This document shows positions 4,842-13,083 of a stretch of 64,000 bases of DNA, piece after piece (within the stretch, counting starts at the first letter, position 1; each line of letters starts with the position of its first letter). Source of the DNA: Cannabis sativa (taxonomy: Eukaryota > Streptophyta > Magnoliopsida > Rosales > Cannabaceae); the NCBI RefSeq assembly GCF_029168945.1, contig NC_083608.1:20726136-20790135 (forward strand), given 5' to 3'. Below the pieces are notes generated by a model. That model ran no database searches and had not been told where the DNA came from. It saw only the letters and a program-made list of their open reading frames with translations. The position numbers and the translations under genes are program-made.

Positions 4842-5426
4842 CACTACTACAAAAACTAGATTTTGCGTCGGTTCTGACGTCGGCAAAATTTAAAAACCGA
4901 TGCTATTAAAGAACCCATAAATTTTACGTCGGTTATGAACTGACGCAAGAATAGCGTCAGTTGTAAGACTATTTGCGTCCGTTCTACACTGATGCTAACC
5001 TTGCGTCAGTTCACAACTGACGCAAAAAATCCTACGTAAAAAAATTAAATCAACAGATGGGCCAAGCCCATTTCACAAACCCTAAATATATATAACCTTC
5101 TACTTTCAGCCGCCCCATATACGATTTTCACAAACCCTAAATTCGTAACTATTATGAATGTGGTGGCCACGTAATAGATGTGACATTTTTCAACCGACGT
5201 AATAAGTTTTTTGTGACAGTTTTAAAATGCCATAAACAATTTAGCGTCATTTTTTAACCGACGCATAAAATAAAATAGAAAACTAAGTATTTAGCGTCGG
5301 TTAATAAATGTCGAAAATTGTTTTTTGCGTCATTTCAAAAATGACGCTAATAAAAAACTATTTGCGACTACGGTATATACGTCGAATTATAAACCGACAT
5401 AAATTCTTTAAGTGACACTTAAAAAC

Positions 5427-5855
5427 TGAACTTGTTCATAGGAATGGTATTGCAAACAAGAGTAAGTTAATTGATCATGATCAGAAATAATAGTGAGAGG
5501 CATTCACGAGTCAGGGATCATAAATTGTATGCAAAGTTTAAAAAGTGAAAATTCTAGTTATCAGAAGTGTCCTTCCAGTGGCATAGTGTCGGGAAAGATG
5601 GAATTATGGTCAATCCAAGAAAGATTGAGTCAGTTAAGAATTGGTCGAGGCCAAGAATAGTTACTGAGGTTTGAAGTTTTCTCATATTGGTAGGGTATTA
5701 TCGATGTTTTGTAGAAGGTTTTTCTAAGATTTTGATGCCATTGACAGAATTGACTAAAAAGGACCAACAATTTGTGTGGTCTAACAAGTGTGAAATGAGC
5801 TTTCAAGAGTTTAAGCAACGATTGATCACAGCACTAGTGTTAGCTTTACCATCAA
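5427..5855 (+). pseudogene. Ty3/gypsy RT fragment in unit A
   Basis: Encodes the end of the reverse transcriptase and the connection to RNase H: DGIMVNPRKIESVKNW, then a TGA, then VGYYRCFVEGFSKILMPLTE and FVWSNKCEMSFQEFKQRL. This is standard Ty3/gypsy sequence. It is cut off at 'accatca' and joined to telomere-type repeats at 5856. No catalytic FxDD motif is included and it cannot be functional. Confidence 0.85.
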
Positions 5856-5904
5856 CCTTAAACCCTAAACCCTAAACCCTAAACCCTAAACCCTAAACCC
5901 TAAA
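5856..5904. repeat. Telomere-type heptamer block, 7 units
   Basis: One CCTTAAA followed by six perfect CCCTAAA units (5863-5904), the plant telomere motif. It sits at the junction between the truncated gypsy fragment of unit A and the CACTA part of unit B. In unit A the same position (5080-5086) holds a single CCCTAAA. Confidence 0.95.
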
Positions 5905-6194
5905 TATATATAACCTTCTACTTTCAGCCGCCCCATATACGATTTTCACAAACCCTAAATTCGTAACTATTATGAATATGGTGGCCACGTAATAGATGTG
6001 ACATTTTTCAACCGACGTAATAAGTTTTTTGTGACAGTTTTAAAATGCCATAAACAATTTAGCGTCATTTTTTAACCGACGCATAAAATAAAATAGAAAA
6101 CTAAGTATTTAGCGTCGGTTAATAAATGTCGAAAATTGTTTTTTGCGTCATTTCAAAAATGACGCTAATAAAAAACTATTTGCGACTACGGTAT

Positions 6195-11241: not shown

Positions 11242-11670
11242 TGAACTTGTTCATAGGAATGGTATTGCAAACAAGAGTAAGTTAATTGATCATGATCAGA
11301 AATAATACTGAGAGGCATTCACGAGTCAGGGATCATAAATTGTATGCAAAGTTTAAAAAGTGAAAATTCTAGTTATCAGAAGTGTCCTTCCAGTGGCATA
11401 GTGTCGGGAAAGATGGAATTATGGTCAATCCAAGAAAGATTGAGTCAGTTAAGAATTGGTCGAGGCCAAGAATAGTTACTGAGGTTTGAAGTTTTCTCAT
11501 ATTGGTAGGGTATTATCGATGTTTTGTAGAAGGTTTTTCTAAGATTTTGATGCCATTGACAGAATTGACTAAAAAGGACCAACAATTTGTGTGGTCTAAC
11601 AAGTGTGAAATGAGCTTTCAAGAGTTTAAGCAACGATTGATCACAGCACTAGTGTTAGCTTTACCATCAA
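11242..11670 (+). pseudogene. Ty3/gypsy RT fragment in unit C
   Basis: Third copy of the truncated reverse-transcriptase fragment, 825 bp after the second and essentially identical to it. Confidence 0.85.
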
Positions 11671-11719
11671 CCCTAAACCCTAAACCCTAAACCCTAAACC
11701 CTAAACCCTAAACCCTAAA
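11671..11719. repeat. Telomere-type heptamer block, 7 units
   Basis: Seven perfect CCCTAAA copies at the junction of units C and D. Confidence 0.97.
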
Positions 11720-12059
11720 TATATATAACCTTCTACTTTCAGCCGCCCCATATACGATTTTCACAAACCCTAAATTCGTAACTATTATGAATATGGTGGC
11801 CACGTAATAGATGTGACATTTTTCAACCGACGTAATAAGTTTTTTGTGACAGTTTTAAAATGCCATAAATAATTTAGCGTCATTTTTTAACCGACGCATA
11901 AAATAAAATAGAAAACTAAGTATTTAGCGTCGGTTAATAAATGTCGAAAATTGTTTTTTGCGTCATTTCAAAAATGACGCTAATAAAAAACTATTTGCGA
12001 CTACGGTATATACGTCGAATTATAAACCGACATAAATTCTTTAAGTGACACTTAAAAAC

Positions 12060-13083
12060 TGAACTTGTTCATAAGAATGGTATTGCAAACAAGAGTAAGT
12101 TAATTGATCATGATCAGAAATAATACTGAGAGGCATTCACGAGTCAGGGATCATAAATTGTATGCAAAGTTTAAAAAGTGAAAATTCTAGTTATCAGAAG
12201 TGTCCTTCCAGTGGCATAGTGTCGGGAAAGATGGAATTATGGTCAATCCAAGAAAGATTGAGTCAGTTAAGAATTGGTCGAGGCCAAGAATAGTTACTGA
12301 GGTTTGAAGTTTTCTCATATTGGTAGGGTATTATCGATGTTTTGTAGAAGGTTTTTCTAAGATTTTGATGCCATTGACAGAATTGACTAAAAAGGACCAA
12401 CAATTTGTGTGGTCTAACAAGTGTGAAATGAGCTTTCAAGAGTTTAAGCAACGATTGATCACAGCACTAGTGTTAGCTTTACCATCAGACCCACAAAAAT
12501 TTGTTGTTTATTGATGCATCCAGACAGGATCTGGGATGTGTTTTGATGCAAGATAACAGAGTCATAGCCTATGCATCCGGACAGTTGAAGGATTATGAGT
12601 AGCGCTACTCGACACATGAATTAGAACTAGTTGCGGTTGTGTTTGCCCTAAAAATATGGTGACATTATCTGTATGGGGAGAAGTGTGAGATTTATACAGA
12701 CCATAAGAGTCCTAAGTATTTCTTCACTAAAAAATACTTGAATATGAGACTGAGACAGTGGTTATAGCTAGTTAAGGATTATGACTGCGAGATTTTGTAT
12801 CATTCCGGGAAAGTCAATGTGGTGGCAGATGCTTTGGGCAAAAGAGGTCCCAGACAAGTGTTAGAAATAAAAACAAAGTATAAAAATTACCCCTGCATGA
12901 AAGCAAACTAACACATAAAACAAATAACCTCTTAAACGAAAAAGTTTACAAACCACAAATAAAATAACTCCCCCCTAAAATAAAGGTTTAGAATTGTAAC
13001 CAACAATCCAAAAAATAAATGTATACTCTCCCTTTTGTATATCAAGGAGCCAATATATAACAAGCAAAATAAACAAAGTCATA
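12060..13083 (+). pseudogene. Ty3/gypsy RT-RNase H fragment, long copy in unit D
   Basis: This copy is not truncated at 'accatca' but continues through RNase H: after a 2-base deletion near 12512 the frame reads DLGCVLMQDNRVIAYA, a TAG at 12600-12602, THELELVAVVFALKIW, a TGA, HYLYGEKCEIYTDHK, and a further TAG. It ends at 'caaagtcata', after which CACTA subterminal DNA resumes. The same 1.03-kb segment occurs at 14481-15507, outside this CACTA element, with the same three stop codons, so the fragment was already dead when copied. Confidence 0.87.

What the first reader, a model, noticed from the sequence alone, without database searches (positions are those of the whole stretch)
5080..13083. 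Tandem array in a CACTA element with unit length 769 + 7n bp, set by telomere-type heptamers
Unit lengths 776, 818 and 825 bp equal a constant 769-bp core plus 1, 7 and 8 copies of CCCTAAA. Each junction joins a gypsy fragment broken at the same base ('accatca') to the heptamers. The first unit has only one heptamer, part of normal CACTA subterminal sequence (aaaccctaaatatata). This suggests the array grew from a break healed at that single CCCTAAA, with heptamers added by slippage or telomerase-like synthesis, then duplicated. A transposon interior with telomere-repeat seams at every repeat joint is unusual.
Basis: partly seen in the sequence, partly recalled or inferred. Interest (0 to 1): 0.85.

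Follow-up and report, generated by a model that had tools for sequence, protein, structure and literature searches.

The report
Duplicated transposon end with telomere-repeat seams
In a plant chromosome, part of a small jumping element and the DNA beside it was duplicated several times, and each joint between the copies carries seven or eight telomere repeats that probably grew from one telomere-like motif in the element when a break was repaired.

Summary
In detail: four units share a 768-bp core (769 with one flanking A) and begin with 1, 7, 8 and 7 heptamers; a nested CACTA splits unit 2.

The array is not transposon cargo. Its non-CACTA half copies DNA 0.9 kb outside the element's right end. 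Both edges of that copy cut through repeats that run on unbroken in the flank and at other genome loci, so the flank is the parent. Best history: a ~614-bp CACTA; a local tandem duplication with loss of the first copy's right end; a new joint at the CCCTAAA; heptamers made there; stepwise copying; a nested insertion.

The CCCTAAA is a telo box normal for this family's left end (6 of 10 relatives aligned carry the block, none with a tract). The fused seam has three genome hits, all here, so it is not a satellite.

Telomere repeats at repaired breaks are known in mammals and proposed for plants. A telo-box-seeded seam copied into an array is a new variant. Telomerase, templated end joining and slippage cannot be told apart from sequence.

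The parts
4842..4993 (+). Left end of the outer CACTA (TIR CACTACTACAAAAA; TSD GTT at 4839-4841)
   Evidence: relatives
4994..5076 (+). Subterminal stretch before the telo box, with two site II motifs (5058, 5065); repeated at 13085-13167
5077..5086 (+). Unexpanded first telo box (AAACCCTAAA), the seed; single CCCTAAA at 5080-5086
5087..5429 (+). Unit 1, CACTA-derived part (second telo box at 5132)
5430..5854 (+). Unit 1, flank-derived part (copy of 14484-14908), broken after ACCATCA
5855..5904 (+). Seam 1: A + 7 heptamers, the first CCTTAAA
5905..6194 (+). Unit 2, first piece, CACTA-derived
6195..10363 (+). Nested CACTA (TSD TAT) inserted into unit 2; carries a capping-enzyme gene fragment
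10367..10844 (+). Unit 2, second piece (CACTA-derived end, then flank-derived part)
10845..10901 (+). Seam 2: A + 8 heptamers
10902..11669 (+). Unit 3 core
11670..11719 (+). Seam 3: A + 7 heptamers
11720..12487 (+). Unit 4 core; its flank-derived part is not broken at ACCATCA
12488..13084 (+). Continuation of the last flank-derived copy (gypsy RNase H part and LTR-like repeat), cut at the point matching 15508
13085..13546 (+). Second copy of the CACTA right part, with unexpanded telo box at 13168 and the right TIR (TSD GTT 13547-13549)
13547..14483 (+). Spacer, including part of a dispersed repeat that runs to about 14515; missing from the first copy
14484..15508 (+). Parent of the flank-derived part of the units

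Best explanation
A non-autonomous CACTA of about 614 bp inserted (TSD GTT) about 0.9 kb from a gypsy fragment. The stretch from inside the element (4994) to inside the downstream repeat (15508) was duplicated in tandem, and the first copy lacks the element's right TIR and the spacer, joined at TGA inside TAAAAA[C/T]TGA (the arrangement and its direction are shown by comparison; whether one event or two is not known). Later a new joint fused the flank-derived DNA, broken after ACCATCA, to the element's telo box. About six to seven extra CCCTAAA heptamers were made at that joint (inferred): the broken end, whose minus strand runs 3' into TTTAGGG, was probably extended by telomerase before it was joined. 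The unit with its seam was then copied stepwise, in the order (1,(2,(3,4))), with the tract drifting by one heptamer, and a second CACTA inserted into unit 2. The local history is well supported; the timing of the tract's growth and the enzyme are inferred.
For: Flank as parent: 26 of 35 other scored matches to 14300-14700 run across 14484 and none ends there (four aligned base by base); 39 of 40 other rows for 15380-15680 run across 15508. Timing: 8-9 of 425 and 7-9 of 343 differences from the flank and right copies against 2-4 of 768 among units; 3 bases fixed in all four units but not in the right copy or the family majority. Order: columns 407 and 151. Joint: 3 of 3 joint telo boxes expanded, 0 of 8 non-joint ones (5080, 13171 and six relatives). 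Seam unique to this locus. Geometry: the tract extends the TTTAGGG-ending strand, as in mammalian telomere repeats added at breaks with in-register ends (PMC2246262); 42-49 bp were added, near the primate mean of about 46 and above the usual size of polymerase-theta insertions (under 25 bp, passage in PMC12426944).
Against: The three expanded joints descend from one, so joint and expansion are linked only once. Units 2-4 and 3-4 groupings rest on one base each. Telomere triplets are common in this genome and a distant relative, L078, has AAACCCTAACCCTAACC, two short copies near this place without any duplication, so a telo box may also grow by itself. No telomerase-specific mark was found.
Confidence: 0.55

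Rival explanations
1. Same local duplications, but the joint first carried only the single telo box, and the tract grew later by replication slippage or unequal exchange before the unit was copied.
For: Tract length does vary between units (7, 8, 7). L078 shows two CCCTAA copies near this place. Slippage of human-type telomere repeats is described in yeast (passage of PMC6410037).
Against: 0 of 8 non-joint copies of this telo box, and none of the 5 copies of the second telo box here (5135, 5953, 10950, 11768, 13226), has a tract; slippage from about 1.4 copies needs a start.
Confidence: 0.3
2. The units were made at once, by rolling-circle copying of an excised circle or repeated template switching, rather than stepwise.
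For: Equal 768-bp cores and high identity (2-4 of 768 differences). Circle-based amplification is proposed for large plant telomeric arrays (passage of PMC8621592).
Against: Nested shared bases at columns 407 and 151 and different seam lengths, though each is a single site.
Confidence: 0.07
3. The outer CACTA carries the array as cargo and brought it here by transposition.
For: The array lies between matching TIRs with a GTT TSD.
Against: The flank-derived half matches the DNA just outside the element, cut at both edges; the seam is at no other locus.
Confidence: 0.04
4. Assembly artefact.
For: Units are 99.5-99.7% identical, and no reads could be checked.
Against: Private bases in units 1, 3 and 4, and a private CCTTAAA and a 4.2-kb insertion in unit 2.
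Confidence: 0.04

Closest known systems
Short interstitial telomeric sequences inserted at repaired double-strand breaks in mammals (PMC2246262: outline and two sections; PMC7215372: passages)
   Same: Short, nearly perfect telomere tract at a rearranged joint; broken end in register with the repeat; some horse cases came with duplications of the flanks
   Different: Plant heptamer; the register is a whole pre-existing motif; the joint was then copied three times as part of a larger unit
Telo boxes and the telomerase model for their spread in plants (Gaspin et al. 2010, PMC3022908: abstract and passages)
   Same: A telo box with site II motifs and a TATA stretch; telomerase acting on free 3' ends at promoters is their proposal
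   Different: Their model adds one motif; here an existing telo box, inside a transposon end, is the seed of a tract of 7-8
Interstitial telomeric repeats of seed plants (review PMC8621592: passages)
   Same: CCCTAAA repeats inside a chromosome; repair of breaks is named there as one possible origin of short ones
   Different: That review is about arrays seen under the microscope; this is a sequence-level case with parent and product side by side
Satellite DNA
   Same: Head-to-tail units that include a telomere-type motif
   Different: Four units at one place; the seam is found at no other locus

Membership tests
CACTA transposon (outer element, about 614 bp before the duplications) | CACTA terminal inverted repeats at both ends | tested here: met
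   First 13 bases of the inverted repeats identical
CACTA transposon (outer element, about 614 bp before the duplications) | 3-bp target site duplication | tested here: met
   GTT on both sides in the printed context
CACTA transposon (outer element, about 614 bp before the duplications) | Other copies of the ends in the genome | tested here: met
   Right end: 35 other long matches, 40 of 376 candidates scored. Left end: 14 of 14 candidates scored
CACTA transposon (outer element, about 614 bp before the duplications) | Transposase gene | not tested
   No transposase was searched for in the element; it is treated as non-autonomous from its size
Short ITS inserted at a repaired break | Short, nearly perfect telomere tract | tested here: met
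   7, 8 and 7 heptamers, one substitution in 22 heptamers
Short ITS inserted at a repaired break | Tract at a break joint, with the pre-break sequence known | tested here: met
   Both parents of the joint are present in the window
Short ITS inserted at a repaired break | Appeared in one step (empty allele against full tract) | not testable with these tools
   Needs other accessions or species
Short ITS inserted at a repaired break | Made by telomerase | not testable with these tools
   In-register end and length fit; sequence alone does not name the enzyme
Satellite DNA | Same unit at many loci or in long arrays | tested here: not met
   Seam with up to 2 mismatches: 3 genome hits, all here

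The most novel reading that the evidence does not exclude
Telo boxes in promoters and transposon ends act as landing pads for telomerase when DNA breaks there. They turn a one-off break into a telomere-seamed joint, and the tract then helps the flanking unit to multiply: a route from a regulatory motif to an interstitial telomeric array.
Probability: 0.25. Interest if true: 0.65.

Novelty: new variant of a known kind. Interest (0 to 1): 0.42.

Why it matters
Parent flanks, joints and successive units are all still present at one young locus, so the question of how a single telomere-like motif becomes an interstitial telomere tract can be asked directly, by looking for alleles with fewer units or shorter seams. 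It also shows a promoter-type telo box in the ends of a CACTA family as a possible seed.

Tried and rejected
Array as transposon cargo, or as a captured gypsy piece from elsewhere: rejected, because the source lies in the adjacent flank and both edges of the copy are cut there.

Flank as a copy of the array (the reverse direction): considered because the joint lies near the edge of the gypsy fragment; rejected.

Telo-box block private to this element: I wrote this in notebook entry 3, which saw only right ends. Searches show that it is normal for the family's left end; entry 4 corrects it.

Solo LTR with a TSD starting at 15282: no supported end found.

Microhomology scan: 22 pairs of 11 bases with at most one mismatch lie between the CACTA part and the flank, and the actual joint is not among them (its two sides agree in 9 of 10 bases). 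Such matches are common in this A+T-rich DNA, so only the exact TGA at the joint is claimed.

Seam pattern in bacterial and archaeal genomes: 5 matches, taken as chance and not followed. A CACTA pattern in viral contigs: 0.

Survey of other telomere tracts for duplication joints: not completed; one search gave counts and places but no loci.

Print: searches (1 paper, a crayfish repeatome; 6; 6; 1; 28, 15 listed; 0 papers with both CACTA and telo box) showed no such case in listings; most of the listed papers were not opened.

Full report
Setting. The window is plant DNA, 32% G+C, with dirigent genes; the closest full-length named relative of one of them is from hop, Humulus lupulus, at 82% identity. 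It lies at C8:20726136-20790135 of a genome of 770.7 Mb in 18 contigs. The outer element at 4842-13546 has CACTA inverted repeats and GTT on both sides; a second CACTA at 6195-10363 has TAT on both sides.

The observation. They start with 1, 7, 8 and 7 heptamers, the first heptamer of unit 2 being CCTTAAA. Three of three seams join ACCATCA to ACC[C/T]TAAA; the fourth copy reads on into 12488-13084. No tract of 6 or more heptamers appeared in 50 Markov-1 sequences of the window's length.

Where the second half of the unit comes from. 12053-13084 is 97.3% identical to 14474-15508, which begins 0.9 kb beyond the right inverted repeat, and the CACTA part 4994-5429 is repeated at 13085-13520 with 97.9% identity. 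Parent and copy can be told apart. For 14300-14700, 40 of 1167 candidates were scored: 5 matches are this locus; of the other 35, 26 run across 14484, 9 do not reach it and none ends there. Five of these loci were aligned: L052 to L055 are continuous across the point, L056 does not reach it. The array copies switch there to CACTA sequence. For 15380-15680, 40 of 593 candidates were scored: of 42 rows, 2 are this locus and 39 of the other 40 run across 15508, where the array copy ends. The flank is therefore parental and the array derived. The first of these joints has TGA in common, inside ten bases with one mismatch; the joint at 13084/13085 has none.

Order of events. The flank-derived part differs from the flank in 8-9 of 425 bases, the CACTA part from its right copy in 7-9 of 343, and the units from each other in 2-4 of 768. 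Against 25 fetched family copies, of 35 found, the CACTA part shows 11 differences from the family majority shared by array and right copy, 3 in the array only and 4 in the right copy only. So the first duplication is several times older than the array, unless gene conversion has evened out the units. Column 407 groups units 2-4, with unit 1 keeping the flank's base, and column 151 groups units 3 and 4; each grouping rests on one base. As the seams of units 2, 3 and 4 all have 7-8 heptamers, the tract most simply predates the last two duplications.

The seed. The single CCCTAAA of unit 1 is the core of a telo box at 5077, 12 and 19 bp after two site II motifs and next to TATATATA. [quoted passage not shown] A telo box with two or more site II motifs in the 150 bp before it occurred in 3 of 200 Markov-1 windows; this window has four, all in this element and two of them by its duplication. 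The left-end search scored 14 of 14 candidates and gave 18 rows. I aligned ten of the loci: six carry the block (L068, L069 and L076 with AAACCCTAAATATATATAACC; L070, L072 and L075 with variants), and none of these has a CCCTAAA tract there; L071, L073, L074 and L078 do not align in the block, and L078 has AAACCCTAACCCTAACC nearby. Right-end relatives share only query positions 177-180 onward, in 35 of 35 other long matches (two further rows are short), so this element joins about 300 bp of left end to 286 bp of right end. The seam with up to 2 mismatches has 3 hits in the genome, all here.

How the seams arose. Of the first telo box, 3 of 3 copies at joints are expanded, and 8 of 8 copies elsewhere are not (5080, 13171 and the six relatives). 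The three joints are one lineage, so this is one event, but it ties growth to the joint. The geometry fits extension of a broken end: the minus strand on the CACTA side runs 3' into TTTAGGG, and the tract meets the flank-derived DNA with one base in common. Telomere repeats added at breaks in mammals show in-register ends, and their mean length in primates is about 46 nt (PMC2246262, two sections); here 42-49 bp were added. Templated insertions by polymerase theta are generally under 25 bp (PMC12426944, passages). I therefore prefer telomerase-type addition, with slippage after joining as a serious rival; the sequence does not name the enzyme.

Verdict. The locus is real as assembled, unique in this genome by its seam, and unusually legible. 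Telomere tracts at repaired breaks are known; a telo-box-seeded seam that was then copied as part of an array is a variant that my searches did not show in print (listings, with passages of the papers cited). No age in years is given, because no mutation rate was tested.

Noticed in passing
6195-10363, fragment 9454-9687 (+): The nested CACTA carries a fragment of an mRNA capping enzyme gene (PF01331, E 5.2e-20), with stretches that look like introns around it: a captured host gene piece.
   Followed up: partly
L009 (C1:13206483 of the genome): Another short tract (CCTTAAA plus three heptamers) lies between two 23-bp copies, one base different, of CCCTTCCTACAA[G/A]CAAGAACCTT: a second telomere tract at a duplication joint, seen by eye in the flank printed.
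   Followed up: partly
genome contig C1, about 61.4-63.8 Mb: The 100 places listed for tract starts (of 143) are all on C1, most of them between 61.4 and 63.8 Mb with a dense cluster at 62.08-62.20 Mb: an interstitial telomeric region or a repeat that holds the motif (the list is cut at the first places).
   Followed up: no
L078: A distant left-end relative has AAACCCTAACCCTAACC near site II-like sequence: two short copies without a duplication.
   Followed up: no
4994-5180 and left ends of L068, L069, L070, L072, L075, L076: This CACTA family's left end looks like a ribosome-biogenesis-type promoter: site II, telo box, TATATATA, and in several relatives a CT-rich stretch after it.
   Followed up: partly
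52878-52955 and 53906-54039: Two short-period repeat tracts in opposite orientation about 1 kb apart, 94-100% alike in the self-comparison.
   Followed up: no
2691-3293 (-) and 23121-23735 (+): Two open frames that read as dirigent proteins, in opposite orientation (the second searched).
   Followed up: no
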